Origin: Chitinophagales bacterium
GTDB taxonomy: Bacteria > Bacteroidota > Bacteroidia > Chitinophagales > JADIYW01
Direction of reading: 5' to 3'
DNA length: 64,000 nucleotides
NCBI GenBank assembly: GCA_019694955.1
Contig: JAIBAX010000012.1
Span: forward strand, 24,097-88,096
Shown here in pieces: positions 3,831-58,471 of the stretch. How positions within the stretch are numbered: position 1 is the stretch's first letter; each line of letters starts with the position of its first letter. The notes under the pieces were generated by a model. That model was not told the origin of the DNA and ran no database searches. It saw nothing but the letters and a program-made list of their open reading frames with translations. The position numbers were made by a program, and so were the translations under genes.

Positions 3831-4184
3831 AAAGTCTAAAGTTATCTCATTTTATCAAATAAATGCTGAAATGGATATTAATTTGAAATTAAAAAAACGC
3901 AAAAGATAAATATGTCTTAAATTAAATTTTCACATTAACTAATATTTTATAATAAATTATTATTCAATTTTTTATATAACTTTATATTTACTTTTACATT
4001 GTTTAAATATTTATAATAAATTGTATATATTTAATTTATTTAATATAATTAAAGTAAATTATAAAAATAATATATTAATATATTAAATTAATAATAATTA
4101 ATTTATAATTATTAATAAAAATAAATTTATAATAATAATAATAATTGATTATCACATTCAATTATTATTGTTATATTTGTTTTC
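3831..4184. other. Very AT-rich 354-bp intergenic spacer
   Basis: Divergent promoter region between the exporter operon (minus) and sdaA (plus). From about 3955 to 4150 the sequence has only a handful of G or C bases and consists of overlapping AAT/ATT/TAA triplet runs, ending in an (AAT)n stretch at about 4128-4145. No reading frame, tRNA or long hairpin was found. Such a stretch is expected to be curved or easily melted and may bind nucleoid proteins, but this is inference. No DnaA-box-like 9-mers were seen, so an origin is not supported. Confidence 0.7.
4145..4179 (+). promoter_or_regulatory. Candidate Bacteroidota promoter of sdaA
   Basis: TATATTTG at 4172-4179 matches the Bacteroidota -7 element TAnnTTTG, and a TTG at 4145-4147 lies 24 nt upstream, close to the usual spacing for the -33 TTG. 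The -7 element ends only 5 nt before the sdaA ATG, so the transcript would start at or next to the start codon (leaderless). In AT-rich DNA this motif can arise by chance. Confidence 0.45.
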
Positions 4185-21091: not shown

Positions 21092-22204
21092 TTAACACCA
21101 TAAAAGGCTGATCAGTGCTTGCGTGTTTTTTTGGTTATCATAACGCCTTAAATACTCCATTCTTTCTTTTTCATGAAGTGAGCTATATTTCATGGGATAT
21201 ACTTGCTTGATCATATCTTTCCATTGTTCATGGGTATTTGCATAGAAAACGGTGCTTAATCCGGTATTTTCTGTTGTATTTGTAATGATAAATTTACCGC
21301 TATACAAGGCATTCACCAGTTTTATCTTGGCGCCACACTGTATTTGAAATGGCAAAAGATGTATATGTGCTGTCCTTAAAAGGTGCAACATCTCTTCCTG
21401 ATTTGGATTCTTCCGCAACTCAACATTGGGATATTGTCCTATTTTCGCTACCAAATGTTTGGAAGGATTCTTTCCGGCGATGATGATTTTATAAGGTTCA
21501 TTTCCCAAAGTATCCAATAGAAATTCTACGGAAGCCCTATTTTCATTTACAGAAAGATTCCCATGATATAAGAAAAAAGAAGCCTCCTCTTTAGTCGGCA
21601 AGATTTCTTTATTGGCATGAAAGCATGGTATATAATGAACTTTCTTACCGTACTTACTTAAATAATAATGTTTATCAGCTTCGGAGATACAGGCAATTAT
21701 ATCAGCAAAACCTAACACGTCCTCAAAAAACGCCAGTCTCTTTGCCTCCCGACGAAAATACCACCGCCGAAACAGATTTTTTTCCAATGCTGCCAAACTG
21801 CTGTAATAATCGTGTTCTATATTATGTAACCTTACCAGTTTTTTTCGCTCCCGCAACATTGGATGCGCCAGAAAAAAGCACGTATGTATTCCTTCAAAGA
21901 TGATTGGATAATCGTCCTTAACTAAATTGCGTAAAAGAGTCTCATCAGAACGGGTAGCTACTATAAAAGGCTTTGCATCTAAAAGTTTTAAAGGATGTAG
22001 CTTTCGTGGGTAATAATAGACTTGCTCACACATTTCCGCCAGTCGCTTTGACACTTGTCTACCGTAGATAAAACTATGCAAATGAACCTTAACGCCTGCA
22101 TTTACTAGGCATGCTATTTTATAGTAAATTTCTATTACGCCACCATAATCGGGTGGTGAGGGAACGTCAAAAGCAATAATATGAACATGCTGCTCTTGCA
22201 ACAT
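21092..22204 (-). CDS. Glycosyltransferase, GT-B fold (intact copy)
   Basis: A 370-residue GT4-like glycosyltransferase. The N-terminal Rossmann half starts HIIAFDVPSPPDYGGVIEIYYK, in which the G-G loop binds the acceptor side. The C-terminal half has FLYHGNLSVNENRASVEFL, the IIIAGKNPS strand and LPFQIQCGAKIKLVNALYSGKFIITN, the usual donor-binding region. Sugar and acceptor are unknown. Its start is 2 nt after the UbiB-like gene's stop. The first 144 residues or so are duplicated, together with everything upstream, at 27345-27775, where the gene is truncated. Confidence 0.83.
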   Translation of the reverse strand: MLQEQHVHIIAFDVPSPPDYGGVIEIYYKIACLVNAGVKVHLHSFIYGRQVSKRLAEMCEQVYYYPRKLHPLKLLDAKPFIVATRSDETLLRNLVKDDYPIIFEGIHTCFFLAHPMLRERKKLVRLHNIEHDYYSSLAALEKNLFRRWYFRREAKRLAFFEDVLGFADIIACISEADKHYYLSKYGKKVHYIPCFHANKEILPTKEEASFFLYHGNLSVNENRASVEFLLDTLGNEPYKIIIAGKNPSKHLVAKIGQYPNVELRKNPNQEEMLHLLRTAHIHLLPFQIQCGAKIKLVNALYSGKFIITNTTENTGLSTVFYANTHEQWKDMIKQVYPMKYSSLHEKERMEYLRRYDNQKNTQALISLLWC

Positions 22205-22206
22205 GC

Positions 22207-23877
22207 TTAATCTTGTCTAAGTGCAAGGATAGCGCCCACCACAAAAAGGGCTGTATATGCCTGCCATGGCTGTCCGGTGGCTACCAACATACATCCACCC
22301 AGAATACAGCAACCACCCAAGATAACATTTTTGATGCCCTCGATTGGATTTTTCTTCTTCTGCTCTACTAAATTGCGTTCTAATATCCTGAATCCTTCCA
22401 TCAATACTGCGGGACTTCTCATAATGACATCGAACAATTCCGGTGCATTCAATAACTGACTTTTTAGCAAATCAACAGGATTGACCTCGTTCAATACCAA
22501 TCTCCTTATATGTTTTTTGGAGACTTTAGCAATATTCAAATTCGGTAATATGACGTTTCCAACACCTTCAAAAGTAACGATGGCTTTCACCATTAGTACC
22601 AATTCCAAAGGAAAATACATCCTATACTTGGCCCCTAAAACTACCGATTCAAAAATGAGCTGCCCTAGAGAAAAGTCTGCAAAATTGGGTGAACGTTGCC
22701 ATCTATTGGCTACTTGAACAAACTCTTTTCTAAATCCTTCGATATCGCCTCCTTTCCCGGGCTTTGCTACTAACGACAGGTATCTTGCTGATGCCTGTGG
22801 ATCGCCGGCAACTAAACTGCTGTAATAGTACAACATGTTCTTTCTGGTATCTTCCTCGAAACGTCCGACCATGCCTAAATCGATGAAACCACACTTTACA
22901 CCTGTATCATCTTTCAAAATGATTAAGTTGCCGGGGTGTAAATCCGCATGGAAAAAACCATCGCTGTACAACATTTGTATGATGGACATAGCACCCAAAT
23001 CCACGACTTTTTCTTTTTCCTCCTGATTGAGAATGGCAGCGAGCTGCGCATCGGGCTTATACCCTTTAAAAAACTCCATGACGATTACATCAGGTGTACT
23101 ATAATCGCGATACATTTTTGGGAAAACGACATCAGGATGTTTCGCAAAATTAGCACTGAATAATTCGGCATTTTCCACTTCCAACCTAAAATCCACCTCT
23201 CTGTTAGTATAATCGCAGAACTCTGTCATCATGTTCTTAGGTTGCAACTGAGGTATAAAATGTTCCAAAATTCCCCCTAAAGACTTGATGATTTTGCTAT
23301 CTGTAACGATAATTTCTCTAGTTCCGGGTTTGAGCAGTTTGATGACCACTTCTTCTCCTGACCTTAAAACGGCTTTATGCGCCTGTGCAATGGAAGCAGA
23401 ACCCAGCGGCTTCTCTCCAATGCTCTTAAAAATTTTATGGTAGGGTTGCTTCCATTGCTCTTCGGCTTTTTCTAAAAAACGCTCATAAGGCAAAGCCGGA
23501 AGGGAATCCAGCAGTTTCTTCAGTTCATCTGTGACTTCTTTGGGAAGAATATCTTCCCTCAAACTCATAATTTGCCCCAACTTAATATATGTTGGACCCA
23601 ACATCTCAAGTCTTCTTCTTAGCTGTACGGCAAAAGGTTGTCTGAGCAACTTCTTATTTAAAAATGGATAGTGCAACCAAAGAAAAATCTTCAGAAAAGT
23701 ATACCTGAATTTCTTTTTGGCATTCGTTTCCTTTCGGTGCTTCAAAAACGCATAACCACCACCCAATAGCAACCCCGTTAAATGACGAGTGGTAACAATC
23801 AACCTTATCCATAAAGGGCTTGGCTTGCGTTCGATATATCTTTCAAATTCTCTTTCCTGTGTAACCGTAGATTCCAT
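22207..23877 (-). CDS. AarF/ABC1/UbiB family atypical kinase (copy 1)
   Basis: Membrane-associated protein-kinase-like protein of 556 residues. The UbiB/ADCK hallmarks are all visible: KxGQ motif at 99-102, alanine-rich nucleotide loop PLGSASIAQAH at 157-167, K180 in VVIK, HADLHPGN at 310-317 and the metal-binding IDLG at 332-335. Two hydrophobic segments at about 515-555 anchor the C-terminus. In Proteobacteria UbiB supports ubiquinone synthesis; Bacteroidota generally use menaquinone, so the role may be in quinone or other lipid extraction. It appears to head the run UbiB - glycosyltransferase - CDF - HAD. An identical copy lies at 27778-29448. Confidence 0.9.
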   Translation of the reverse strand: MESTVTQEREFERYIERKPSPLWIRLIVTTRHLTGLLLGGGYAFLKHRKETNAKKKFRYTFLKIFLWLHYPFLNKKLLRQPFAVQLRRRLEMLGPTYIKLGQIMSLREDILPKEVTDELKKLLDSLPALPYERFLEKAEEQWKQPYHKIFKSIGEKPLGSASIAQAHKAVLRSGEEVVIKLLKPGTREIIVTDSKIIKSLGGILEHFIPQLQPKNMMTEFCDYTNREVDFRLEVENAELFSANFAKHPDVVFPKMYRDYSTPDVIVMEFFKGYKPDAQLAAILNQEEKEKVVDLGAMSIIQMLYSDGFFHADLHPGNLIILKDDTGVKCGFIDLGMVGRFEEDTRKNMLYYYSSLVAGDPQASARYLSLVAKPGKGGDIEGFRKEFVQVANRWQRSPNFADFSLGQLIFESVVLGAKYRMYFPLELVLMVKAIVTFEGVGNVILPNLNIAKVSKKHIRRLVLNEVNPVDLLKSQLLNAPELFDVIMRSPAVLMEGFRILERNLVEQKKKNPIEGIKNVILGGCCILGGCMLVATGQPWQAYTALFVVGAILALRQD

Positions 23878-24125
23878 TATTATTTATATGAATTCAACGA
23901 AAATAGGAATTTTTTTAAAAATCAAGGAGAAAATTTTCTCAGACAAAGTCTCGTACAGCGATATGCACATTGCGTATTGCGACGTTAACTGTGGTCTATT
24001 GACTATATGTCTATGGTCCGTTGACCTGTGAACTGTGAACTTTTTTCTACGAATGCACGAATTAAGTTTTTAGGTATGGTCGTCTGTGGACTGTGGTCTG
24101 TTGACCAATAACCTGTAACTATTGA
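23878..24125. repeat. Intergenic repeat-phrase cluster (copy 1)
   Basis: The 248 bp between the histidine kinase end and the UbiB-like start contain no gene. A 31-bp box, starting GTACAGCGATATGCACATTG, is at 23953-23983. It is followed by GTGGTCTATTGAC, GTCCGTTGACCTGTGAACTGTGAAC, then TACGAATGCACGAATT at about 24049-24064, and a run of GTCTGTGG / TCTGTTGACC / TATTGACT words to 24160. The same vocabulary recurs in five other intergenic regions of the window. Confidence 0.7.
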
Positions 24126-25904
24126 CTATAATCTGTTGACATTTGACCATTGACCATCATTAAAGATGGTGATGGTGGCTTTGAACCCCTTCCCTTTTTC
24201 TGAAGAAAATGTAAGTTCGCAGTTAATCATTTGCGCTAGGTCTTGTATGATATGCAAACCCAGCCCGGACTGCCCACTATTGATTTTATTGTTCGAAAGA
24301 TTCTTATTAAAAACGTCCATATCTACACCACGCCCATTATCGGTAATGATAAACTGTTGATGGTCTTTATTATATGTCCAAATAATTTCTGGTTTATCTT
24401 GTTTACTCACCGCTTTGATAGCGTTGGAGGTTAGGTTTTGCATCATCACCTGTAAGATATTTATGTCTGTTTGTACAAAAATGCCTTCCTCTTCATGGAA
24501 ATCAAAATGTATGAAAGTTTCATTAACAAAGAATCTCTTTAAATATGCGAAAACATCCGCTACAGTTATCTTTTCGATGGTTGGATTGAAGTGATCTAAC
24601 TGACTTTTACTCCATGTTAACATGGTTTCCATATTGTCCAGTAAATTTTTAGCCTGATACTTCGTTTTTTGGTTGAGTTGCTGCAAGGTCGTCTCATCTA
24701 ATGTGTTATCCTCTTTTAAATCCAAGAATGAAATAATATTGGCAATGGGACTTCTCAAATCGTGGCTGATGATACTAAATAGCCTTGTTTTTGTTTCGTT
24801 GGATTTTTGTAAGGCGCGGTTAAGGTGTTGTAATTTAATATTGTTTCTTTTTCTTGCTAATGCCTGAAAATACAAGAGAAATCCGATAACCGTGACAAGG
24901 AAAAGTCCGATTAACAATCCAATTCTCGTTTTCTTTTGGTTGTCGATTTGGATTTGATTGAGTTGAATTTGTCGATTTTTCTTTTCAATTTCCAATTGAC
25001 TCTCTTGATTGGCCAATTGATTCTTCACATCTTGCGAATAAACGGAATCGTTGATATAGTAGTAAGTCCTAAAATTTTCCAAGGCATTTTTGTAATCCCC
25101 ATTTAGCTCCTGAAGTTCTGATAAAATTCCGGAGTAATAGCCGTAATCGATGATATTGTTCTGATTTTTTGCCAATATAATGGCATGGTTGATAAAAGAC
25201 GCTCCTTTTTCAATGCAAGCTTGCCTTGTTTTGGGAATATTTGGCGAAAGGACACTTAAGCTATCATATAGTTGAAATCGAACAATATCTTTAAAAGTAT
25301 TGCCAATATTTCCTTCATTGATGATATAATAGCTGTTGCGGGTATCGCCAAAAAAACGCCTACTTTTTAAACTATAATCGAGGTTATTGACATAATCTTG
25401 GTCAAAAGTGATGCTCCAATTGGCATAAAGTCCGGCTAGGCGAGCTGAATCTATGGTGGATTGCAAATAGCATTTTTCGGCTTTTTTAAACATGATTTTA
25501 GCAGAATCATATTGTTGATTAACGACATGTATATCACCTCTTCTTTTAAAGAAATCTCCTTCAAGCAAAGGTTTTCCTTTCGATAATTGATAGGCTTTTT
25601 CAAAATATTGGTAGGCCTTTTCATGGTTTTTATGGTAGAAAAATACGCGCCCAATACCATAATAACACGATATTAACAAACTATCATTCCCCAATTGAAC
25701 CCCATATTGCGATGCTTTGAGCAAGTAATTCAAGGCTTGGTTATAATTTGCTTCTTCAATATAAAGGGTGCCAATTCTTTGATTTATTATGACTTTGTCT
25801 TCTAATTTTTTTACTGTTGGTTCTATTTTAACCAATGAATCGAGTGTATTTGCTTGGATAAAAAACAGCATGGACGAGAAGAATATACACGCCAGAAATC
25901 TCAT
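24126..25904 (-). CDS. Sensor histidine kinase with TPR sensor domain (copy 1)
   Basis: A 592-residue membrane kinase. A signal peptide (1-18) precedes tetratricopeptide-like helical repeats at about 40-280, a coiled coil at 295-325 and one membrane helix at 328-350. The HisKA domain has the phosphoacceptor H381 in ISHDLRSP, and the ATPase domain shows the N-box (N490/N494), DNGRG at 522-526 and GQSGLGL at 544-550. The predicted topology puts the TPR part in the periplasm. Its start overlaps the response regulator gene by 4 nt, so the two form a pair. The final residues, encoded near 24126-24160, run into the intergenic repeat vocabulary. An identical copy is at 29697-31475. Confidence 0.9.
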   Translation of the reverse strand: MRFLACIFFSSMLFFIQANTLDSLVKIEPTVKKLEDKVIINQRIGTLYIEEANYNQALNYLLKASQYGVQLGNDSLLISCYYGIGRVFFYHKNHEKAYQYFEKAYQLSKGKPLLEGDFFKRRGDIHVVNQQYDSAKIMFKKAEKCYLQSTIDSARLAGLYANWSITFDQDYVNNLDYSLKSRRFFGDTRNSYYIINEGNIGNTFKDIVRFQLYDSLSVLSPNIPKTRQACIEKGASFINHAIILAKNQNNIIDYGYYSGILSELQELNGDYKNALENFRTYYYINDSVYSQDVKNQLANQESQLEIEKKNRQIQLNQIQIDNQKKTRIGLLIGLFLVTVIGFLLYFQALARKRNNIKLQHLNRALQKSNETKTRLFSIISHDLRSPIANIISFLDLKEDNTLDETTLQQLNQKTKYQAKNLLDNMETMLTWSKSQLDHFNPTIEKITVADVFAYLKRFFVNETFIHFDFHEEEGIFVQTDINILQVMMQNLTSNAIKAVSKQDKPEIIWTYNKDHQQFIITDNGRGVDMDVFNKNLSNNKINSGQSGLGLHIIQDLAQMINCELTFSSEKGKGFKATITIFNDGQWSNVNRL

Positions 25905-26599
25905 GACAGAAGGTTTTGTATTTGCTGTTTGTACATTCTTCCTACGGGCAAAGCATGTCCTTCTACCAGTATTTCTCCTGATTTAATTGAGCTAACTAAG
26001 TGTTTTGGAACGGCATAACTTCGATGAATTCTAATGAAATTTGCGAATGATTTTTCATTAATAAGGTTACCTAAAGTGCCATAAACGGAAAATACTTTTT
26101 GCTTTGTCACAATTTTCGTATAATCTTTCAAGGCTTCCATGTATTGTATTTCATGCAACTGTATTTTATGTTGCTCAATGCCGTCTTTAATTAAAATACT
26201 TTCACCAAAATGTGTGTCTAACAAGTGTGCTTTTTCTTGAAGTTGCAGGTATTGCCTTATTCTTTCGACACATACCAAAAATCTTTGTTTGGAGAGTGGT
26301 TTAGAGATGAAATCCAAAGCGTTTTGCTCAAAACCTTCTAAAGCATACTCCGGATGGCTGGTAATAAAAACGCATACTGGCACTTCCGGTAATTTGCTTC
26401 TGAGCGTCAATCCATCCATCTCGCCCATGTCAATATCCAAAAATAGAATATCCGGCTTTTCTTCGAGTATAAAAGTTAATGCCTGTTCTGCTTGCTCAAA
26501 TTCACCCACAATCGTTAATTCGTGCACAGACTTTACATGCATACGCAAGGTAAGCCGATCGATTTCATTGTCTTCAACGATTACACAACGGTAAGCCAT
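25901..26599 (-). CDS. LytTR-family response regulator (copy 1)
   Basis: Response regulator of 232 residues. The receiver domain starts YRCVIVEDNEIDR, with phosphoacceptor D55 in ILFLDIDMGEMDG and a conserved lysine in ISKPLSKQRF. The C-terminal LytTR domain (about 130-232) includes YMEALKDYTKIVTKQ and FIRIHRSYAVPKHLV, the DNA-binding signatures. The ATG at 26599 is chosen because the domain begins there; an upstream extension in the same frame would run through low-complexity phenylalanine-rich sequence. It overlaps the kinase gene by 4 nt. A 20-bp-period direct repeat lies just upstream and may be its own binding site. Identical copy at 31472-32170. Confidence 0.9.
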   Translation of the reverse strand: MAYRCVIVEDNEIDRLTLRMHVKSVHELTIVGEFEQAEQALTFILEEKPDILFLDIDMGEMDGLTLRSKLPEVPVCVFITSHPEYALEGFEQNALDFISKPLSKQRFLVCVERIRQYLQLQEKAHLLDTHFGESILIKDGIEQHKIQLHEIQYMEALKDYTKIVTKQKVFSVYGTLGNLINEKSFANFIRIHRSYAVPKHLVSSIKSGEILVEGHALPVGRMYKQQIQNLLS

Positions 26600-26623
26600 T
26601 AGTTGGATTTGGGATAAAAATAG

Positions 26624-26664
26624 AAAAAAATGTCGTTTGTCGAAAAAAAATGTCGTTTGTCGAA
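26624..26664. promoter_or_regulatory. 20-bp-period direct repeat, possible LytTR binding site (copy 1)
   Basis: TGTCGTTTGTCG occurs at 26631-26642 and again at 26651-26662, each preceded by a run of seven or eight A's. CGTTTGT within it fits seven of the nine positions of the LytTR consensus [TA][AC][CA]GTTN[AG][TG], and such sites are direct repeats about two helical turns apart. It lies 25-65 bp upstream of the response regulator start, between it and the divergent lipoprotein gene. Confidence 0.45.
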
Positions 26665-26717
26665 TCATCATTTTTTCAAAAATAATAAAGCAACACTTTT
26701 GACAAAAAAAGTACATT

Positions 26718-27227
26718 ATGAAGAAGATGACTATGTTACTAAGTATTACGGCACTATTACTTTTTTCGTGCTGCAAAAAGGACGAGAACGGCGGTTCGGA
26801 AGAGAATTATTTGAGTTTTAACATCGACGGTGTGTTGTGGGAAGCAGATACTGATATTTTTGGGAGTTATCATTTCAGCGAAGAAATTGGCCCTAAACTC
26901 ATCAATATTGCGGGTTCAAAAGGTGAAGGATCGGCACAGCAGGCTTTCAATATTAATCTCTACAATACAGATAAAGAAGGTAGCTATACCGTAAATATAC
27001 CCGACAACACCTCTGCCGGAGCCAATCAGAATGTAGCACAATTAGGAAATTTAACGCCAACAAATTACCTGTGTGGTGGATTAATGCAAGGCAGTCAGTT
27101 CACCGTTAATATCACCAAAGTTTCTAAAGATCCCCAAATTGTCGAAGCTACTTTCAGCGGGAAAATGCAATGCGTGGAAGGTAATACGATAACAATTACA
27201 GATGGCAAGTTTTCTTATCATGAATAA
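26718..27227 (+). CDS. Small lipoprotein (copy 1)
   Basis: A 169-residue lipoprotein with signal MKKMTMLLSITALLLFSC, lipobox cysteine 18 or 19 (C-C) followed by K-K-D-E. The remainder is predicted mostly beta, with a YLSFNIDGVLWEAD opening and a GKMQC..GNTITITDGKFSY end, like the DUF6252-type/'immunoglobulin-like' small lipoproteins common in Bacteroidota. No function is assigned. It is divergent from the two-component pair, sharing the direct-repeat region, so it may be one of its targets. Identical copy at 32289-32798. Confidence 0.75.
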   Translation: MKKMTMLLSITALLLFSCCKKDENGGSEENYLSFNIDGVLWEADTDIFGSYHFSEEIGPKLINIAGSKGEGSAQQAFNINLYNTDKEGSYTVNIPDNTSAGANQNVAQLGNLTPTNYLCGGLMQGSQFTVNITKVSKDPQIVEATFSGKMQCVEGNTITITDGKFSYHE

Positions 27228-27232
27228 ATGTT

Positions 27233-27775
27233 TTAAAATGAGACAATGGCTAATTGGGTTATTAATACTTGCGCTGTCCTTCTCATGTAAAAAAGAGGGC
27301 GAGGAAAATTTGGCAAATACCCACCCATACAAAGGTACAGTAACAGATTTTTTTCCAATGCTGCCAAACTGCTGTAATAATCGTGTTCTATATTATGTAA
27401 CCTTACCAGTTTTTTTCGCTCCCGCAACATTGGATGCGCCAGAAAAAAGCACGTATGTATTCCTTCAAAGATGATTGGATAATCGTCCTTAACTAAATTG
27501 CGTAAAAGAGTCTCATCAGAACGGGTAGCTACTATAAAAGGCTTTGCATCTAAAAGTTTTAAAGGATGTAGCTTTCGTGGGTAATAATAGACTTGCTCAC
27601 ACATTTCCGCCAGTCGCTTTGACACTTGTCTACCGTAGATAAAACTATGCAAATGAACCTTAACGCCTGCATTTACTAGGCATGCTATTTTATAGTAAAT
27701 TTCTATTACGCCACCATAATCGGGTGGTGAGGGAACGTCAAAAGCAATAATATGAACATGCTGCTCTTGCAACAT
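27233..27775 (-). pseudogene. Truncated glycosyltransferase, chimeric at the duplication junction
   Basis: The first 144 or so residues repeat the N-terminal half of the glycosyltransferase at 21092-22204 exactly, up to ALEKNL. From the junction at about 27344 the frame continues into antisense of the neighbouring lipoprotein fragment and adds some 36 unrelated residues before a stop. The donor-binding C-terminal domain is lost, so the product cannot be an active GT-B enzyme. Confidence 0.85.
27238..27474 (+). pseudogene. Truncated lipoprotein, chimeric at the duplication junction
   Basis: Begins like the intact lipoprotein at 32809-33327 (signal MRQWLIGLLILALSFSC, then KKEGEEN) and matches it through HPYKGTV. 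The junction then throws the frame into antisense of the glycosyltransferase copy, adding about 43 unrelated residues (TDFFPMLPN...). The signal and lipobox are intact, so a short acylated chimera could be made, but the native domain is absent. Confidence 0.8.
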
Positions 27776-27777
27776 GC

Positions 27778-29448
27778 TTAATCTTGTCTAAGTGCAAGGA
27801 TAGCGCCCACCACAAAAAGGGCTGTATATGCCTGCCATGGCTGTCCGGTGGCTACCAACATACATCCACCCAGAATACAGCAACCACCCAAGATAACATT
27901 TTTGATGCCCTCGATTGGATTTTTCTTCTTCTGCTCTACTAAATTGCGTTCTAATATCCTGAATCCTTCCATCAATACTGCGGGACTTCTCATAATGACA
28001 TCGAACAATTCCGGTGCATTCAATAACTGACTTTTTAGCAAATCAACAGGATTGACCTCGTTCAATACCAATCTCCTTATATGTTTTTTGGAGACTTTAG
28101 CAATATTCAAATTCGGTAATATGACGTTTCCAACACCTTCAAAAGTAACGATGGCTTTCACCATTAGTACCAATTCCAAAGGAAAATACATCCTATACTT
28201 GGCCCCTAAAACTACCGATTCAAAAATGAGCTGCCCTAGAGAAAAGTCTGCAAAATTGGGTGAACGTTGCCATCTATTGGCTACTTGAACAAACTCTTTT
28301 CTAAATCCTTCGATATCGCCTCCTTTCCCGGGCTTTGCTACTAACGACAGGTATCTTGCTGATGCCTGTGGATCGCCGGCAACTAAACTGCTGTAATAGT
28401 ACAACATGTTCTTTCTGGTATCTTCCTCGAAACGTCCGACCATGCCTAAATCGATGAAACCACACTTTACACCTGTATCATCTTTCAAAATGATTAAGTT
28501 GCCGGGGTGTAAATCCGCATGGAAAAAACCATCGCTGTACAACATTTGTATGATGGACATAGCACCCAAATCCACGACTTTTTCTTTTTCCTCCTGATTG
28601 AGAATGGCAGCGAGCTGCGCATCGGGCTTATACCCTTTAAAAAACTCCATGACGATTACATCAGGTGTACTATAATCGCGATACATTTTTGGGAAAACGA
28701 CATCAGGATGTTTCGCAAAATTAGCACTGAATAATTCGGCATTTTCCACTTCCAACCTAAAATCCACCTCTCTGTTAGTATAATCGCAGAACTCTGTCAT
28801 CATGTTCTTAGGTTGCAACTGAGGTATAAAATGTTCCAAAATTCCCCCTAAAGACTTGATGATTTTGCTATCTGTAACGATAATTTCTCTAGTTCCGGGT
28901 TTGAGCAGTTTGATGACCACTTCTTCTCCTGACCTTAAAACGGCTTTATGCGCCTGTGCAATGGAAGCAGAACCCAGCGGCTTCTCTCCAATGCTCTTAA
29001 AAATTTTATGGTAGGGTTGCTTCCATTGCTCTTCGGCTTTTTCTAAAAAACGCTCATAAGGCAAAGCCGGAAGGGAATCCAGCAGTTTCTTCAGTTCATC
29101 TGTGACTTCTTTGGGAAGAATATCTTCCCTCAAACTCATAATTTGCCCCAACTTAATATATGTTGGACCCAACATCTCAAGTCTTCTTCTTAGCTGTACG
29201 GCAAAAGGTTGTCTGAGCAACTTCTTATTTAAAAATGGATAGTGCAACCAAAGAAAAATCTTCAGAAAAGTATACCTGAATTTCTTTTTGGCATTCGTTT
29301 CCTTTCGGTGCTTCAAAAACGCATAACCACCACCCAATAGCAACCCCGTTAAATGACGAGTGGTAACAATCAACCTTATCCATAAAGGGCTTGGCTTGCG
29401 TTCGATATATCTTTCAAATTCTCTTTCCTGTGTAACCGTAGATTCCAT
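27778..29448 (-). CDS. AarF/ABC1/UbiB family atypical kinase (copy 2)
   Basis: Residue-for-residue identical to the 556-residue protein at 22207-23877, with the same KxGQ, alanine-rich loop, HADLHPGN and IDLG motifs. Here the gene downstream (2 nt) is the truncated glycosyltransferase, so this copy lacks the rest of its operon. Confidence 0.9.
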   Translation of the reverse strand: MESTVTQEREFERYIERKPSPLWIRLIVTTRHLTGLLLGGGYAFLKHRKETNAKKKFRYTFLKIFLWLHYPFLNKKLLRQPFAVQLRRRLEMLGPTYIKLGQIMSLREDILPKEVTDELKKLLDSLPALPYERFLEKAEEQWKQPYHKIFKSIGEKPLGSASIAQAHKAVLRSGEEVVIKLLKPGTREIIVTDSKIIKSLGGILEHFIPQLQPKNMMTEFCDYTNREVDFRLEVENAELFSANFAKHPDVVFPKMYRDYSTPDVIVMEFFKGYKPDAQLAAILNQEEKEKVVDLGAMSIIQMLYSDGFFHADLHPGNLIILKDDTGVKCGFIDLGMVGRFEEDTRKNMLYYYSSLVAGDPQASARYLSLVAKPGKGGDIEGFRKEFVQVANRWQRSPNFADFSLGQLIFESVVLGAKYRMYFPLELVLMVKAIVTFEGVGNVILPNLNIAKVSKKHIRRLVLNEVNPVDLLKSQLLNAPELFDVIMRSPAVLMEGFRILERNLVEQKKKNPIEGIKNVILGGCCILGGCMLVATGQPWQAYTALFVVGAILALRQD

Positions 29449-29696
29449 TATTATTTATATGAATTCAACGAAAATAGGAATTTTTTTAAAAATCAAGGAG
29501 AAAATTTTCTCAGACAAAGTCTCGTACAGCGATATGCACATTGCGTATTGCGACGTTAACTGTGGTCTATTGACTATATGTCTATGGTCCGTTGACCTGT
29601 GAACTGTGAACTTTTTTCTACGAATGCACGAATTAAGTTTTTAGGTATGGTCGTCTGTGGACTGTGGTCTGTTGACCAATAACCTGTAACTATTGA
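29449..29696. repeat. Intergenic repeat-phrase cluster (copy 2)
   Basis: Exact copy of 23878-24125, including the GCG-rich 31-bp box at 29524-29554 and the TTGACC/CTGTGAAC words. No gene. Confidence 0.7.
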
Positions 29697-31475
29697 CTAT
29701 AATCTGTTGACATTTGACCATTGACCATCATTAAAGATGGTGATGGTGGCTTTGAACCCCTTCCCTTTTTCTGAAGAAAATGTAAGTTCGCAGTTAATCA
29801 TTTGCGCTAGGTCTTGTATGATATGCAAACCCAGCCCGGACTGCCCACTATTGATTTTATTGTTCGAAAGATTCTTATTAAAAACGTCCATATCTACACC
29901 ACGCCCATTATCGGTAATGATAAACTGTTGATGGTCTTTATTATATGTCCAAATAATTTCTGGTTTATCTTGTTTACTCACCGCTTTGATAGCGTTGGAG
30001 GTTAGGTTTTGCATCATCACCTGTAAGATATTTATGTCTGTTTGTACAAAAATGCCTTCCTCTTCATGGAAATCAAAATGTATGAAAGTTTCATTAACAA
30101 AGAATCTCTTTAAATATGCGAAAACATCCGCTACAGTTATCTTTTCGATGGTTGGATTGAAGTGATCTAACTGACTTTTACTCCATGTTAACATGGTTTC
30201 CATATTGTCCAGTAAATTTTTAGCCTGATACTTCGTTTTTTGGTTGAGTTGCTGCAAGGTCGTCTCATCTAATGTGTTATCCTCTTTTAAATCCAAGAAT
30301 GAAATAATATTGGCAATGGGACTTCTCAAATCGTGGCTGATGATACTAAATAGCCTTGTTTTTGTTTCGTTGGATTTTTGTAAGGCGCGGTTAAGGTGTT
30401 GTAATTTAATATTGTTTCTTTTTCTTGCTAATGCCTGAAAATACAAGAGAAATCCGATAACCGTGACAAGGAAAAGTCCGATTAACAATCCAATTCTCGT
30501 TTTCTTTTGGTTGTCGATTTGGATTTGATTGAGTTGAATTTGTCGATTTTTCTTTTCAATTTCCAATTGACTCTCTTGATTGGCCAATTGATTCTTCACA
30601 TCTTGCGAATAAACGGAATCGTTGATATAGTAGTAAGTCCTAAAATTTTCCAAGGCATTTTTGTAATCCCCATTTAGCTCCTGAAGTTCTGATAAAATTC
30701 CGGAGTAATAGCCGTAATCGATGATATTGTTCTGATTTTTTGCCAATATAATGGCATGGTTGATAAAAGACGCTCCTTTTTCAATGCAAGCTTGCCTTGT
30801 TTTGGGAATATTTGGCGAAAGGACACTTAAGCTATCATATAGTTGAAATCGAACAATATCTTTAAAAGTATTGCCAATATTTCCTTCATTGATGATATAA
30901 TAGCTGTTGCGGGTATCGCCAAAAAAACGCCTACTTTTTAAACTATAATCGAGGTTATTGACATAATCTTGGTCAAAAGTGATGCTCCAATTGGCATAAA
31001 GTCCGGCTAGGCGAGCTGAATCTATGGTGGATTGCAAATAGCATTTTTCGGCTTTTTTAAACATGATTTTAGCAGAATCATATTGTTGATTAACGACATG
31101 TATATCACCTCTTCTTTTAAAGAAATCTCCTTCAAGCAAAGGTTTTCCTTTCGATAATTGATAGGCTTTTTCAAAATATTGGTAGGCCTTTTCATGGTTT
31201 TTATGGTAGAAAAATACGCGCCCAATACCATAATAACACGATATTAACAAACTATCATTCCCCAATTGAACCCCATATTGCGATGCTTTGAGCAAGTAAT
31301 TCAAGGCTTGGTTATAATTTGCTTCTTCAATATAAAGGGTGCCAATTCTTTGATTTATTATGACTTTGTCTTCTAATTTTTTTACTGTTGGTTCTATTTT
31401 AACCAATGAATCGAGTGTATTTGCTTGGATAAAAAACAGCATGGACGAGAAGAATATACACGCCAGAAATCTCAT
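29697..31475 (-). CDS. Sensor histidine kinase with TPR sensor domain (copy 2)
   Basis: Identical to the 592-residue kinase at 24126-25904 and, like it, overlapping its response regulator gene by 4 nt. Two identical copies would raise the dose of the pair rather than create a new specificity. Confidence 0.9.
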   Translation of the reverse strand: MRFLACIFFSSMLFFIQANTLDSLVKIEPTVKKLEDKVIINQRIGTLYIEEANYNQALNYLLKASQYGVQLGNDSLLISCYYGIGRVFFYHKNHEKAYQYFEKAYQLSKGKPLLEGDFFKRRGDIHVVNQQYDSAKIMFKKAEKCYLQSTIDSARLAGLYANWSITFDQDYVNNLDYSLKSRRFFGDTRNSYYIINEGNIGNTFKDIVRFQLYDSLSVLSPNIPKTRQACIEKGASFINHAIILAKNQNNIIDYGYYSGILSELQELNGDYKNALENFRTYYYINDSVYSQDVKNQLANQESQLEIEKKNRQIQLNQIQIDNQKKTRIGLLIGLFLVTVIGFLLYFQALARKRNNIKLQHLNRALQKSNETKTRLFSIISHDLRSPIANIISFLDLKEDNTLDETTLQQLNQKTKYQAKNLLDNMETMLTWSKSQLDHFNPTIEKITVADVFAYLKRFFVNETFIHFDFHEEEGIFVQTDINILQVMMQNLTSNAIKAVSKQDKPEIIWTYNKDHQQFIITDNGRGVDMDVFNKNLSNNKINSGQSGLGLHIIQDLAQMINCELTFSSEKGKGFKATITIFNDGQWSNVNRL

Positions 31476-32170
31476 GACAGAAGGTTTTGTATTTGCTGTT
31501 TGTACATTCTTCCTACGGGCAAAGCATGTCCTTCTACCAGTATTTCTCCTGATTTAATTGAGCTAACTAAGTGTTTTGGAACGGCATAACTTCGATGAAT
31601 TCTAATGAAATTTGCGAATGATTTTTCATTAATAAGGTTACCTAAAGTGCCATAAACGGAAAATACTTTTTGCTTTGTCACAATTTTCGTATAATCTTTC
31701 AAGGCTTCCATGTATTGTATTTCATGCAACTGTATTTTATGTTGCTCAATGCCGTCTTTAATTAAAATACTTTCACCAAAATGTGTGTCTAACAAGTGTG
31801 CTTTTTCTTGAAGTTGCAGGTATTGCCTTATTCTTTCGACACATACCAAAAATCTTTGTTTGGAGAGTGGTTTAGAGATGAAATCCAAAGCGTTTTGCTC
31901 AAAACCTTCTAAAGCATACTCCGGATGGCTGGTAATAAAAACGCATACTGGCACTTCCGGTAATTTGCTTCTGAGCGTCAATCCATCCATCTCGCCCATG
32001 TCAATATCCAAAAATAGAATATCCGGCTTTTCTTCGAGTATAAAAGTTAATGCCTGTTCTGCTTGCTCAAATTCACCCACAATCGTTAATTCGTGCACAG
32101 ACTTTACATGCATACGCAAGGTAAGCCGATCGATTTCATTGTCTTCAACGATTACACAACGGTAAGCCAT
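31472..32170 (-). CDS. LytTR-family response regulator (copy 2)
   Basis: Identical to the 232-residue regulator at 25901-26599, including D55 and the LytTR domain, and with the same upstream direct repeat. Confidence 0.9.
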   Translation of the reverse strand: MAYRCVIVEDNEIDRLTLRMHVKSVHELTIVGEFEQAEQALTFILEEKPDILFLDIDMGEMDGLTLRSKLPEVPVCVFITSHPEYALEGFEQNALDFISKPLSKQRFLVCVERIRQYLQLQEKAHLLDTHFGESILIKDGIEQHKIQLHEIQYMEALKDYTKIVTKQKVFSVYGTLGNLINEKSFANFIRIHRSYAVPKHLVSSIKSGEILVEGHALPVGRMYKQQIQNLLS

Positions 32171-32194
32171 TAGTTGGATTTGGGATAAAAATAG

Positions 32195-32235
32195 AAAAAA
32201 ATGTCGTTTGTCGAAAAAAAATGTCGTTTGTCGAA
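32195..32235. promoter_or_regulatory. 20-bp-period direct repeat, possible LytTR binding site (copy 2)
   Basis: Exact copy of 26624-26664: TGTCGTTTGTCG twice, 20 bp apart, between response regulator copy 2 and lipoprotein copy 2. Confidence 0.45.
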
Positions 32236-32288
32236 TCATCATTTTTTCAAAAATAATAAAGCAACACTTTTGACAAAAAAAGTACATT

Positions 32289-32798
32289 ATGAAGAAGATG
32301 ACTATGTTACTAAGTATTACGGCACTATTACTTTTTTCGTGCTGCAAAAAGGACGAGAACGGCGGTTCGGAAGAGAATTATTTGAGTTTTAACATCGACG
32401 GTGTGTTGTGGGAAGCAGATACTGATATTTTTGGGAGTTATCATTTCAGCGAAGAAATTGGCCCTAAACTCATCAATATTGCGGGTTCAAAAGGTGAAGG
32501 ATCGGCACAGCAGGCTTTCAATATTAATCTCTACAATACAGATAAAGAAGGTAGCTATACCGTAAATATACCCGACAACACCTCTGCCGGAGCCAATCAG
32601 AATGTAGCACAATTAGGAAATTTAACGCCAACAAATTACCTGTGTGGTGGATTAATGCAAGGCAGTCAGTTCACCGTTAATATCACCAAAGTTTCTAAAG
32701 ATCCCCAAATTGTCGAAGCTACTTTCAGCGGGAAAATGCAATGCGTGGAAGGTAATACGATAACAATTACAGATGGCAAGTTTTCTTATCATGAATAA
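32289..32798 (+). CDS. Small lipoprotein (copy 2)
   Basis: Identical to the 169-residue lipoprotein at 26718-27227. In this copy the ancestral downstream neighbour, another lipoprotein, is intact and starts 10 nt after the stop codon, so the two are probably one transcript. Confidence 0.75.
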   Translation: MKKMTMLLSITALLLFSCCKKDENGGSEENYLSFNIDGVLWEADTDIFGSYHFSEEIGPKLINIAGSKGEGSAQQAFNINLYNTDKEGSYTVNIPDNTSAGANQNVAQLGNLTPTNYLCGGLMQGSQFTVNITKVSKDPQIVEATFSGKMQCVEGNTITITDGKFSYHE

Positions 32799-32808
32799 AT
32801 GTTTTAAA

Positions 32809-33327
32809 ATGAGACAATGGCTAATTGGGTTATTAATACTTGCGCTGTCCTTCTCATGTAAAAAAGAGGGCGAGGAAAATTTGGCAAATACCCACCCATA
32901 CAAAGGTACAGTAAGAATTTATGAGACTAAAAGAAATTTAAGCCTCAAATATTATGATAACGGCACTTCTGCGGGGTTATATTTTTCTTTAGGCTCGGAA
33001 GAATTGTTAGAATTCATGCCCGGAGCTAAAGCTAACCAATACTATATAAGGCCAAAAGACCATCCGGAATGGTGTTTAGATTATAGTACAAAAAATGATA
33101 TATCCATTAAACTATATCCTTATTTAGGTAATGATGCGCAACTATTTAATATTATAGAAAAAGGAGATGGTAATATATTCATACAATGTGTTGCAGATAC
33201 CTCGCTATACTTACTCAATAATTCTGATAATTTGTCGATTGGCCCAAGTAGTTATTTAAGACCACGCAATTCATACCTCGCTACTTACCCCGGAACTTTG
33301 GACTACTGGAAAATAGAACAGTTGTAA
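32809..33327 (+). CDS. Lipoprotein with possible ricin-type beta-trefoil domain
   Basis: About 172 residues. MRQWLIGLLILALSFSC is a good lipoprotein signal, with lipobox cysteine followed by K-K-E. An ATG 18 nt earlier, overlapping the previous gene, is a possible alternative. The body has YYIRPKDHPEWCLDYST, IKLYPYLGNDAQLFNI and a final DYWKIEQL, which resemble the repeated Q-x-W-type units of ricin B lectin folds; this is a tentative reading. Its 5' third is duplicated at 27238-27341, where the gene is broken. It begins the run of lipoproteins that extends to 35369. Confidence 0.68.
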   Translation: MRQWLIGLLILALSFSCKKEGEENLANTHPYKGTVRIYETKRNLSLKYYDNGTSAGLYFSLGSEELLEFMPGAKANQYYIRPKDHPEWCLDYSTKNDISIKLYPYLGNDAQLFNIIEKGDGNIFIQCVADTSLYLLNNSDNLSIGPSSYLRPRNSYLATYPGTLDYWKIEQL

Positions 33328-33427
33328 TTTTATAATAAATCAACCAAAATGTAATGTCCATAAGTTAAACCGCTCTTGAAAATAGTGCATTTATACAAAT
33401 AGATCAAACTTTAAAAATAATATACAG

Positions 33428-34033
33428 ATGAAAAAGATTTTAAATTTAATCTCCATTATTGTCCTGCTTTTTTTTGCTAGTTGCAAAAAGGACGATGCTA
33501 TCTTAAAAGACAATACACCCGTTCAAAATTTCCCTTCCATAGTAATGGGTAACCAATCCGCTGCCAGTTTCAATTGTTTCCTCACTTTTGATTCTTGCAA
33601 GGTCAAACCATTAGCTGAAGCTTTTACAGACCAATCCATTGTTGATTTAATCTTCCTCCATAATAATCCTGATAATTTAGCGATGTTGGTTTCTCCTGCT
33701 TCCATTGCAAGTGCGGTAACCATTCCTCCGGATATTTATACTTTTGCTACTATGGGTGTCACGCATTGGACAAATAAAAACAGTATTCAAATCGGTGTCA
33801 CAGATATTTCTTTAGGCGATTTTAACAACATCGCAACAAATGGCGATTTGCATCAAGCTTATGAGAATGATCCACATGTTACGATTGGATGGGAAATTGA
33901 TATTCAAGCCAATAAAGTTTATAAGTTCACTTCCAACAGAACCGGAAAAAGGGGTTTGATAAAAGTACACTCAATCACCGGAAATTATAACACGCCGGGA
34001 CAAATCAATATCGATATTAAGCTTATTAACTAG
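33428..34033 (+). CDS. Lipoprotein of unknown function
   Basis: A 201-residue protein with signal MKKILNLISIIVLLFFASC and lipobox C19 followed by K-K-D-D. No known domain was recognised. The sequence is of mixed beta type, with two internal cysteines (in SFNCFLTFDSCK) that could pair, and ends GQINIDIKLIN. It lies 100 bp after the beta-trefoil-like lipoprotein and 17 bp before the next. Confidence 0.7.
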   Translation: MKKILNLISIIVLLFFASCKKDDAILKDNTPVQNFPSIVMGNQSAASFNCFLTFDSCKVKPLAEAFTDQSIVDLIFLHNNPDNLAMLVSPASIASAVTIPPDIYTFATMGVTHWTNKNSIQIGVTDISLGDFNNIATNGDLHQAYENDPHVTIGWEIDIQANKVYKFTSNRTGKRGLIKVHSITGNYNTPGQINIDIKLIN

Positions 34034-34050
34034 AAATAAAATCAACAAAT

Positions 34051-34500
34051 ATGAAATCAATGCTTGCTTATGCTTCCCTGATGATGATACTTTCTGTAGG
34101 ATGCAAAAAAGATAGTATAGAAACAAGTATCCAAAATTCCATCACCAATAGGACGTGGAAGTCAACCGGATTTAAGTTGGCTGGAGTCGAACAACCCAGT
34201 TGGTGTTGGAAAAACAGTTTGTTCAATTTTTATGAAGACGGAAAAGTATTTATTACAGAAGGCGACAATGGTGGTGCCTGTTTTGGTACTGTCATCGGTA
34301 GAATTAAACAATATAATTACAGTATTTCTTCCGATAAAAAACAGTTAATCATCCAATACAATATAGGGATACCCGATGAGGTGGATACCTTCTTCATACA
34401 ATCAGTATCGGAAGGAAAACTAAACCTACAACGAATCGTCAACAAAACTACCATGCCGCCCGGTGAATCTTGGGAGGATGAATTTTCTTTAATGCCTTAA
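34051..34500 (+). CDS. Lipocalin-like small lipoprotein
   Basis: A 149-residue lipoprotein: signal MKSMLAYASLMMILSVGC, then K-K-D. NRTWKSTGFK near the start, NFYEDGKVFI in the middle and DKKQLIIQYN later are the pattern of the short lipocalin-like (DUF4923/lipocalin_4 type) domains that are common in Bacteroidota. Function unknown. Gaps of 17 and 5 bp tie it to its neighbours in one operon. Confidence 0.68.
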   Translation: MKSMLAYASLMMILSVGCKKDSIETSIQNSITNRTWKSTGFKLAGVEQPSWCWKNSLFNFYEDGKVFITEGDNGGACFGTVIGRIKQYNYSISSDKKQLIIQYNIGIPDEVDTFFIQSVSEGKLNLQRIVNKTTMPPGESWEDEFSLMP

Positions 34501-34505
34501 AAATT

Positions 34506-35369
34506 ATGACAATGAAAATTAAATATTTCTTTCTTTCTATCATCTTACTTGCTGCATGCAAAAAAGATACTGCGCCCATTGTTAATACGAGTGAAGTAAC
34601 GAATCGCACAATTCTATATGATGTAAACAATCCTTTTGAAAGCAATGATGATGATTACTGTTTTATGCTCTTAGGTGCTGACAACTCGGCACAGAAAAAA
34701 TATTTCAAAGCAAAAATGATAGATGTAGTTCGTGATTCTATGGAAATAATTTCTGGTCCCTACACACTTGATAGTTTAATAGATTTGAGTACTTTTCCGA
34801 GTTTTATTAAATCTGCTAACTCGGGACTATACTTAACAGATTTTGTATTTGCAGATAGCGTTCGCATTCGTCAAACAGGCTCTAACGCCAATGGTAAAAG
34901 AATATTTACGCTAGAAAAATGGAACTCAGGAGAAACTAATTTTGTAAAAGATTTTGCTAAAGGCAAACAAGTAGAAGGATCTACACTCAACTTTTTCAAA
35001 ATTCCTACCAGCTCAGGTGGATACACCGGATATCAAGTGCACTTTTTCTTCAAACTAGGGAAATGTATAGTACATCAAAAAATCACATCGACATCTTCCT
35101 CTACAAACTACGACCGAAGCATAGAAAATATTTCTACGGTCGTTGGTGCTTCTTACGATTGGCAAAATGTAGATAATTATTTTCAAGTATTTGGCGCTTC
35201 CGGCACCACGCAACATTATTTCATCGATTATAAAAACTGGAGATATTTTAGAATTAAAGAATTCAAAACTTCCGTTCCAGGAACGCCGGGTGGGCAATAT
35301 GCTATTGAATATGGCGATTATAAGAGTTTAGACAAATTGTTAAAATGGCCTACAGATTGGAAGCAATAA
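34506..35369 (+). CDS. Lipoprotein of unknown function
   Basis: A 287-residue lipoprotein with lipobox in LSIILLAAC followed by K-K-D. An ATG two codons later (34512) is an equally good start. No domain was recognised. It has alternating beta segments, HFFFKLGKCIVHQKITST and YDWQNVDNYFQVFGASG among them, and ends KLLKWPTDWKQ. It is the last gene of the lipoprotein run and is followed by the repeat array. Confidence 0.68.
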   Translation: MTMKIKYFFLSIILLAACKKDTAPIVNTSEVTNRTILYDVNNPFESNDDDYCFMLLGADNSAQKKYFKAKMIDVVRDSMEIISGPYTLDSLIDLSTFPSFIKSANSGLYLTDFVFADSVRIRQTGSNANGKRIFTLEKWNSGETNFVKDFAKGKQVEGSTLNFFKIPTSSGGYTGYQVHFFFKLGKCIVHQKITSTSSSTNYDRSIENISTVVGASYDWQNVDNYFQVFGASGTTQHYFIDYKNWRYFRIKEFKTSVPGTPGGQYAIEYGDYKSLDKLLKWPTDWKQ

Positions 35370-36000
35370 GCGAATGTCTTTAGTACAGCGATGTGCGTAT
35401 TGCGTATTGCGACAACTTTGGGAAACTTTGTGTATGCTTAGAGGACTTTGTGATATTCCTTAACCACAAAGTACGCCAAGATTTTTCACAAAGTACACCA
35501 AGATTCCCACGTCTCCACATTTCCAAATATCTGTGAACTGTGAACTGACCACTGTGAACTTTTTAGTACAGCGATATTCGTATTGCGTACTGCGACATCT
35601 TCAAATTTTCAAATCCTCACATTTCCTAATGTCTGTGAACTGTGAACTGACCACTGTGAACCTTTTTAGTACAGCGATATTCGTATTGCGTACTGCGACA
35701 TTGGTTAAGTTTTATTGTCACTTGTAGCAAGAGCTACATATTCAAATTTTCAAATCCTCACATTTCCTAATGTCTGTGAACTGTGAACTGACCACTGTGA
35801 ACCTTTTTAGTACAGCGACATTCGTATTGCGTACTGCGACAACTTTGGGAAACTTTGTGTATGCTTATAGGACTTTGTGATATTCCTTAACCACAAAGTA
35901 CGCCAAGATTTTTCAAAAAGTACATCAATTATTAGTGCAATTAATTATTGTCTGTCGTCTATTGACCGTCGTCCGTTAACAGTCTGTGGTCTCATAAACA
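35370..36000. repeat. Intergenic repeat array (four GCG boxes bracketed by an 85-bp direct repeat)
   Basis: No gene in about 630 bp. GCG-rich 31-bp boxes (GTACAGCGATATTCGTATTG...) begin at 35383, 35566, 35669 and 35810. Between them are ATTTTCAAATCCTCACATTTC phrases, CTGTGAACTGTGAACTGACC phrases and a TTTTTAG linker. A segment starting GACAACTTTGGGAAACTTTG occurs at about 35411-35499 and again at 35838-35926, so it brackets the array; inside it ACTTTGTG and CACAAAGT (35445-35452, 35465-35472) can pair. A further hairpin TGTAGC-AAGA-GCTACA is at 35723-35738. The tail (35940-36000) has TTGACC-type words. Short frames in it are not believed to be genes. Confidence 0.85.
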
Positions 36001-58167: not shown

Positions 58168-58471
58168 TTTTTGGTCATTAGTCATGACAATGGTCTGTTT
58201 TTCCAAATCTTCTAATTGTCCTGCGACATTCGTATTGCGTACTGCGACAATTTTCATGTTTTTTTGCCACGAATGCACGAATTTTCACATTTCCAAATTT
58301 ACCGTGAACTGTTGACCAATGACCATTGTCTGTGGTCTATTGACTGTCGTCCGTTGACAATGGTCTGTTTTTCCAAATCTCCAAATCCTCTAATTGTCCG
58401 GCGACATTCGTACTGCGTCTTGCGACGGCTGTGGTCTATTGACTGTGGTCTGTTGACCAAAGACCTATTGA
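58168..58471. repeat. Intergenic repeat-phrase cluster
   Basis: No gene in 304 bp between convergent threonine aldolase and purC. GCG-type boxes lie at 58222-58249 and 58400-58427. Other words are TTTGCCACGAATGCACGAATT at about 58261-58281, TTCACATTTCCAAATTTACC, and repeated GTCTGTGGTCTATTGACTGT / GTCCGTTGACAATGGTCTG units around 58330-58370 and 58430-58485. The last of these reach a few bases into purC. Confidence 0.75.

What the first reader, a model, noticed from the sequence alone, without database searches (positions are those of the whole stretch)
21771..32914. Apparently perfect 5571-bp tandem duplication with 2-bp microhomology
Copy 1 (21771-27341) and copy 2 (27342-32912) show the same reading frames at a constant 5571-bp offset with no difference noticed. 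The junction GTAACAG combines the right-end GTAA with the left-end AACAG, sharing only AA. No IS or longer homology lies at the edges, which suggests a recent illegitimate-recombination event or an assembly artefact. If real, it doubles a UbiB-like kinase, a histidine kinase/LytTR pair and a lipoprotein, a possible gene-dosage adaptation.
Basis: seen in the sequence. Interest (0 to 1): 0.7.

Follow-up and report, generated by a model that had tools for sequence, protein, structure and literature searches.

The report
Perfect 5.6-kb tandem duplication, copies uncounted
A 5,571-letter block carrying four complete genes stands twice in a row, letter for letter, in this bacterial genome draft; it is likely an ordinary chance duplication, and the draft, which was likely built from short reads of a mixed sample, would not be able to say how many copies the cells really carry.

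Summary
Window 21771-27341 and 27342-32912 are identical over 5,571 bp; identity runs 2 bp further (AA) before the flanks differ. A 2-bp overlap is unremarkable: 17.8% of random joins have 2 bp or more. The Pfam scan found no mobile-element domain and both edges cut through genes. Eleven of 12 family relatives carry the UbiB-like gene once, one lacks it, so the doubling is likely derived; no sister genome of the genus is held.

The genome is a 103-contig draft. Both ends of the window's contig share 127-bp words with other contigs, and contig order follows length-rank names: likely a SPAdes-type k=127 short-read assembly binned from a metagenome. In such a graph two copies, three copies, and one copy plus a circle give identical k-mers, and differences between copies may be collapsed; so 'two' and 'recent' are not established. 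The edges share only 2 bp and the junction words are new even at k=21, so the assembler is unlikely to have invented the join.

Best reading: a real, ordinary short-junction tandem duplication of unknown copy number and population share. Dosage benefit is untested. Interest low.

The parts
21771..27341 (.). copy 1 of the 5,571-bp unit
   Evidence: exact self-match
27342..32912 (.). copy 2 of the 5,571-bp unit; identity runs 2 bp further, to 32914
   Evidence: exact self-match
27338..27346 (.). novel junction between the right end of copy 1 and the left end of copy 2, AA shared
   Evidence: edge sequences; junction k-mers absent from the window's single-copy form at k=21 to 251
21092..22204 (-). 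intact 370-aa glycosyltransferase-like gene spanning the left edge
   Evidence: weak Pfam Glyco_transf_4, 25.4 bits, below the cut-off of 28.5; near-full-length relatives in 10 of 12 family genomes at 36-41% identity
22207..23877 (-). UbiB-like ABC1 kinase gene, copy 1
   Evidence: Pfam ABC1 196.4 bits; 294.8 bits, below the NCBIfam UbiB equivalog cut-off of 487.55
24126..25904 (-). TPR sensor histidine kinase, copy 1
   Evidence: Pfam HATPase_c and TPR; HisKA at 25.7 bits, below its cut-off of 26.9
25901..26599 (-). LytTR response regulator, copy 1; its end overlaps the start of the kinase gene by 4 bases
   Evidence: Pfam Response_reg and LytTR; coordinates, start taken at the internal ATG
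26624..26664 (.). two perfect 20-bp direct repeats between the divergent regulator and lipoprotein genes, copy 1; possible regulator site (inferred)
   Evidence: TRF; exact pattern search of the own genome finds this pair only in the two copies
26718..27227 (+). 169-aa lipoprotein-like gene, copy 1 (called so from its leader, by eye)
   Evidence: NCBIfam Riean_0653 family 56.3 bits, just under the cut-off of 57; no Pfam match
27202..27474 (+). junction ORF: start of the second lipoprotein-like gene run into antisense glycosyltransferase, 90 aa
   Evidence: no Pfam match
27233..27775 (-). junction ORF: about the first 145 aa of the glycosyltransferase plus about 35 unrelated aa, 180 aa
   Evidence: matched in full only by this contig's own protein; no Pfam match
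27778..29448 (-). UbiB-like ABC1 kinase gene, copy 2
   Evidence: identical to copy 1
29697..31475 (-). sensor histidine kinase, copy 2
   Evidence: identical to copy 1
31472..32170 (-). LytTR response regulator, copy 2
   Evidence: copy 1 coordinates plus 5,571
32195..32235 (.). 20-bp direct repeat pair, copy 2
32289..32798 (+). 169-aa lipoprotein-like gene, copy 2
32773..33327 (+). intact 184-aa second lipoprotein-like gene spanning the right edge
   Evidence: no Pfam match

Best explanation
The window holds two letter-identical head-to-tail copies of one 5,571-bp unit, which likely mark a real but ordinary tandem duplication made by joining two chromosome sites that share only 2 bp, in an assembly that likely cannot count the copies. 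Shown: the arrangement, the 2-bp overlap, the edges inside two genes whose intact versions stand at the outer ends, the absence of the junction words from the window's single-copy form. Inferred: a replication or repair slip between sister chromosomes joined a site in the second lipoprotein gene to a site in the glycosyltransferase gene; once two copies exist, ordinary homologous recombination would expand or remove them. Inferred: the assembler met the unit as a loop in its graph and walked it once more, so 'two' is the smallest number of chromosomal copies that explains the contig, and only part of the natural population may carry it. Predicted effect, untested: doubled dose of a UbiB-like kinase, a sensor kinase/LytTR pair and a lipoprotein, with two short junction ORFs that would likely be inert.
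For: Exact 5,573-bp run. Edge homology at chance level. No recombinase, integrase or transposase family among the Pfam matches of the nine proteins scanned, eight of which overlap the unit; edges fall inside genes. UbiB-like gene once as a near-full-length relative in 11 of 12 family genomes at 52-73% identity, and only a remote paralogue in the twelfth, G011, 85% complete. Start of contig C57 shares 127 bases with the end of C33; its end shares 127 with the start of C97 and 126 with the end of C40; C7 and C18 starts share 126: de Bruijn k=127, inferred. 29 of 29 contig lengths known to me fit length-rank naming in 4 digit classes, against 9 or more classes in each of 20,000 shuffles. k-mer sets equal for 2 copies, 3 copies, and 1 copy plus circle at all eight k tested; junction k-mers not in the single-copy form. 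Only exact repeat of 120 bp or more in the 488-kb sample. Amplifications of 7-13 kb whose junctions had microhomology or no homology are described (PMC11721125, passage).
Against: No reads or depth seen. In Salmonella cultures 5 of 8 tested duplication junctions were confirmed; the two with 7 and 9 bp of microhomology were not (nor was one of 17 bp), and the deduced cut-off was 11 bp (PMC3411829, passages): 2 bp lies below it, in the range that library chimeras fill. The fused protein was matched in full by no other contig, though that search sees only proteins sharing exact words, clustered at 90%. One pair of contig ends overlaps by 108 bp, which does not fit k=127. The assembler and the metagenome origin are inferred, not named by any record. 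No second genome of the genus was available.
Confidence: 0.7

Rival explanations
1. Library or assembly artefact: a chimeric molecule, or a later scaffolding, merging or bin-reassembly step, made the junction; the cells carry one copy.
For: 2-bp overlap is what random joins give; duplication junctions below 11 bp of overlap were not confirmed in PMC3411829 (two tested, passages); in 488,096 bp sampled the assembly shows no other exact repeat of 120 bp or more, so writing out a 5.6-kb repeat is out of character for it; the fusion was matched in full by no other contig.
Against: A k-mer graph is unlikely to make this join by itself, since the edges share 2 bp and the junction words are absent from the window's single-copy form at k=21; no N at the junction. 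That a lone chimeric read is normally filtered out is recalled knowledge.
Confidence: 0.19
2. The chromosome has one copy, and the unit also exists as an excised circle; the circle closure gives the same junction.
For: k-mer sets of one copy plus circle and of two copies are identical. [quoted passage not shown]
Against: No recombinase, replication or partition family among the Pfam matches of the proteins of the unit that were scanned; edges lie within genes; no terminal repeats beyond 2 bp.
Confidence: 0.06
3. An old duplication kept alike by gene conversion, or whose small differences the assembler erased.
For: Bubble collapse in metagenome assembly would hide isolated differences (recalled knowledge). 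Concerted evolution of paralogues is reported for 26 prokaryote genes (PMC6053082, search listing with start of abstract only).
Against: The family relatives have the UbiB-like gene in single copy and not beside the glycosyltransferase; the cut glycosyltransferase piece is letter-identical to the intact gene. No second genome of the genus was among the 13 family genomes searched, so age within the genus is untested.
Confidence: 0.05

Closest known systems
Short-junction (non-homologous) tandem duplication and amplification in bacteria
   Same: Head-to-tail copies, edges inside genes, 2-bp overlap, no IS. Thirteen sdrM amplifications of 7-13 kb had junctions with microhomology or no homology (PMC11721125, passage); the listing names the underlying work on MRSA and delafloxacin (PMC10256781, start of abstract only).
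   Different: No known selection, no measured copy number, no sister strain.
Spontaneous duplications of Salmonella chemostat cultures (PMC3411829)
   Same: A duplication junction with a short direct overlap.
   Different: Those confirmed had longer overlaps (deduced cut-off 11 bp, passages); here 2 bp.
Graph cycles in metagenome assemblies (PMC9104695)
   Same: A repeat of unknown turn number that a short-read graph cannot count (passages).
   Different: Here the loop stands written out inside a linear contig; no circle is reported.

Membership tests
Non-homologous tandem duplication | Two head-to-tail copies at the same locus | tested here: met
   in the assembly as given
Non-homologous tandem duplication | No long homology at the edges | tested here: met
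   2 bp at the junction; longest shared word nearby at the level of 40 random pairs
Non-homologous tandem duplication | Single copy in the ancestral state | tested here: inconclusive
   UbiB-like gene once in 11 of 12 family relatives and absent in one; glycosyltransferase near full length once in 10 of 12; but no other genome of the genus, and no close counterpart of the sensor kinase in the 12 relatives (partial matches of at most 34% identity)
Non-homologous tandem duplication | Reads across the junction and raised depth over the unit | not testable with these tools
   no reads available
Mobile or integrative element | Recombinase, integrase or transposase gene in the unit | tested here: not met
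   Pfam scan of nine proteins, eight of them overlapping the unit; small antisense ORFs were not scanned
Mobile or integrative element | Terminal repeats or target-site duplication at the edges | tested here: not met
   2-bp direct overlap, longest inverted word 7 bp, within chance
Assembler false join (de Bruijn) | A shared word of about k bases at the joined ends | tested here: not met
   junction k-mers new at all eight k from 21 to 251; none present in the window's single-copy form
UbiB equivalog | NCBIfam TIGR01982 score at or above its cut-off | tested here: not met
   294.8 bits against 487.55; it is an ABC1-family kinase

The most novel reading that the evidence does not exclude
The unit is an amplifiable cassette: a natural population carries a variable-length array (two to many copies, perhaps with free circles) of a sensor kinase, its LytTR regulator, the lipoprotein it controls through the 20-bp direct repeats, and a UbiB-like kinase, so that the whole sensing circuit is tuned by copy number.
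Probability: 0.05. Interest if true: 0.5.

Novelty: new member of a known kind. Interest (0 to 1): 0.17.

Why it matters
Mostly as a caution: a perfect tandem repeat in a short-read or metagenome draft shows that a junction likely exists, not how many copies there are or how recent they are. If the array is real and variable, it would be a natural case of copy-number change of a whole two-component circuit, but nothing here shows selection for it.

Tried and rejected
Mobile element: rejected, no recombinase family among the Pfam matches, edges within genes, no terminal repeats. Microhomology as a sign of mechanism: rejected, 17.8% of random joins have as much. Long-read resolved duplication: judged unlikely, since the draft shows k=127 overlaps. 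Same fusion elsewhere: 9 hits among 72 candidates; only the window's own protein matches in full, the other eight cover 54-80% of the query at 47-56% identity. Named organism or sister genome: the genome-contig scan gave three remote hits (49, 48 and 30% identity), and the tool says that records of the window's own genome may be left out; the family search holds 12 relatives, none of the same genus. In one search, 19 of 60 genomes (own included) had any DNA match; the doubled block was seen in none but the own. Sensor kinase in relatives: partial matches of at most 34% identity in 12 of 12; the best-scoring public proteins are 46-51% identical, one named as from a Chitinophagales MAG (best 120 of 1204 listed). 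Kinase cluster P0010 is said to stand for 4 member sequences on 1 contig; I could not see the other members. Literature: no paper with at least 4 of 'ubib', 'tandem duplication', 'bacteroidetes', 'gene dosage', 'histidine kinase'; the listings of searches showed no direct account of how SPAdes walks loops; two assembler papers were not held. A count of over-represented 12-mers in the sample passed no word through my filter of 15 or more occurrences. Rfam: no match at gathering score; no tRNA. Scan of 26400-28000: 3 promoter-like sites against 4.5 expected, 3 terminator-like against 1.3 (sd 1.2) expected; nothing made of it.
Full report
What is there. At offset 5,571 the window matches itself without a single difference from 21771 to 27343 against 27342 to 32914. 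The unit is 5,571 bp, and the two extra bases are the AA shared by the two outer edges. A search of the own genome with the unit lists these two full copies and 15 short matches, all to one intergenic stretch of it.

Genes. On the minus strand a LytTR response regulator overlaps a TPR sensor histidine kinase, followed by an ABC1-family, UbiB-like kinase and a glycosyltransferase-like gene; divergent from the regulator stands a lipoprotein-like gene ('lipoprotein' is my reading of the leader by eye). The left edge cuts the glycosyltransferase gene after about codon 145 and the right edge cuts a second lipoprotein-like gene. Both genes stand intact once, at the outer ends, as expected of a simple tandem duplication. 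Four genes are complete in both copies: regulator, sensor kinase, UbiB-like kinase and the 169-aa lipoprotein. The junction makes two new ORFs: 180 aa (about 145 of glycosyltransferase plus about 35 unrelated) and 90 aa. The Pfam scan found no domain in either.

Edges. Random joins at 5-6 kb spacing in this window have 2 bp or more of overlap in 17.8% of trials. The neighbourhoods of the two edges share words no longer than 40 random pairs do. Nothing at the edges marks an IS or a site-specific element, and the Pfam matches of the nine proteins scanned (eight overlap the unit) include no recombinase.

What kind of assembly. The genome is a draft of 103 contigs, 4,135,380 bp, and the window runs to the very end of contig C57. 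The start of C57 shares its first 127 bases with the last 127 of C33; its end shares 127 bases with the start of C97 and 126 with the end region of C40 (contig lengths). Among 42 contig ends compared with each other (21 contigs), two pairs were found: C7 and C18 starts share 126, and C6 end and C15 start share 108, the latter not a k=127 overlap. Two more pairs of tails (C4/C11 ends, C7/C17 starts) look the same one base out of register in the printout, which the exact test did not count. The order of contigs is also telling: the 29 lengths that I had fall into four classes (one of 174,525; eight from 171,342 to 59,360; sixteen from 55,252 to 18,190; four from 12,494 to 9,488) within each of which length falls steadily with contig number. 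That is what results when contigs are numbered by length in a large assembly and then sorted as text. None of 20,000 shuffles needed fewer than 9 classes. Inference: a SPAdes-type k=127 assembly of a metagenome, from which this genome was binned. The assembler's name and the metagenome origin are inferred, not read from a record.

Why this matters for the claim. For k of 21, 33, 55, 77, 99, 127, 128 and 251 the k-mer sets of the two-copy window, a three-copy form, and one copy plus a circle are the same. A short-read graph therefore cannot tell them apart except by depth, which I could not see; [quoted passage not shown] In a sample of 488,096 bp from four contigs the longest exact repeat other than this one is 119 bp: in the sample the assembly holds no other repeat as long as its likely k, yet it writes this 5.6-kb one twice. 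A tandem loop is the one kind of repeat that can be walked without spanning reads (inference). So 'two' is a lower bound for a chromosomal array. Likewise small differences between copies would tend to be collapsed (recalled knowledge of such assemblers), so perfect identity does not date the event.

Is the junction real. A false join in a k-mer graph needs a shared word of about k bases. The edges share 2 bp, and none of the junction words occurs in the window's single-copy form even at k=21. The join therefore likely came from a DNA molecule in the library: a cell's chromosome, a circle, or a chimera. Against a cell: in Salmonella cultures 5 of 8 tested duplication junctions were confirmed, those with 7 and 9 bp of overlap were not (nor one of 17 bp), and the deduced cut-off was 11 bp (PMC3411829, passages), so a 2-bp junction would have fallen below it. 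For it: thirteen selected amplifications of 7-13 kb had junctions with microhomology or no homology (PMC11721125, passage), and another paper, citing earlier work by the same group, says that microhomology was not necessary for duplication in E. coli (PMC11111574, passages).

Relatives. The 13 family genomes given by the tool were searched (own plus 12). The UbiB-like gene is present once as a near-full-length relative (52-73% identity) in 11 of 12; G011, 85% complete, has only a remote paralogue of the kind that most of the others, and the own genome, have as well. The glycosyltransferase is near full length once in 10 of 12; G010 and G011 have remote matches only. In one of those 10 (G005) both genes lie on one contig, about 117 kb apart; in the other nine they lie on different contigs, so adjacency was seen in none. 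The sensor kinase has only partial matches of at most 34% identity in the relatives; its best-scoring public relatives are 46-51% identical. No other genome of the genus was available, so the state of sister strains is unknown. The 180-aa fusion protein was matched in full by no other contig.

Possible function. Between the divergent regulator and lipoprotein genes lie two perfect 20-bp direct repeats, a spacing of two helical turns; LytTR regulators are known to bind direct repeats (recalled). The exact pair occurs only at this locus. It is therefore plausible, untested, that the unit carries a small self-contained circuit. Doubling it would raise dosage, but no evidence of benefit exists.

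Verdict. The sequence observation is correct. The most likely cause is an ordinary non-homologous tandem duplication, of unknown copy number and population share. Low interest unless reads show a variable array.

Noticed in passing
window 23953-24126, 35408-35915, 58185-58457: Degenerate intergenic repeats built of words like CTGTGGTCTGTTGACC and CTGTGAACTGTGAAC; the piece inside the unit has 15 listed short matches elsewhere in the genome, and the 35 kb cluster holds copies at offsets of 102-103, 141 and 427 bp. Four exact motifs were counted in the sample: all in C57, one also in C33, none in C1 or C103. Nature unknown.
   Followed up: partly
window 26624-26664 and 32195-32235: Two perfect 20-bp direct repeats between a LytTR regulator and a divergent lipoprotein-like gene, the exact pair found nowhere else in the genome; a candidate regulator site.
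   Followed up: partly
window 32289-35369: Run of five small lipoprotein-like genes on the plus strand beside the regulator pair; the duplication copies the first and the start of the second.
   Followed up: no
window 3941-4145: Very A+T-rich imperfect tandem array with several overlapping periods.
   Followed up: no
G000 contigs (29 of 103 lengths seen): Contig order follows text-sorted length ranks and some contig ends share 126-127 bp, which suggests assembler type and metagenome origin without any record.
   Followed up: yes
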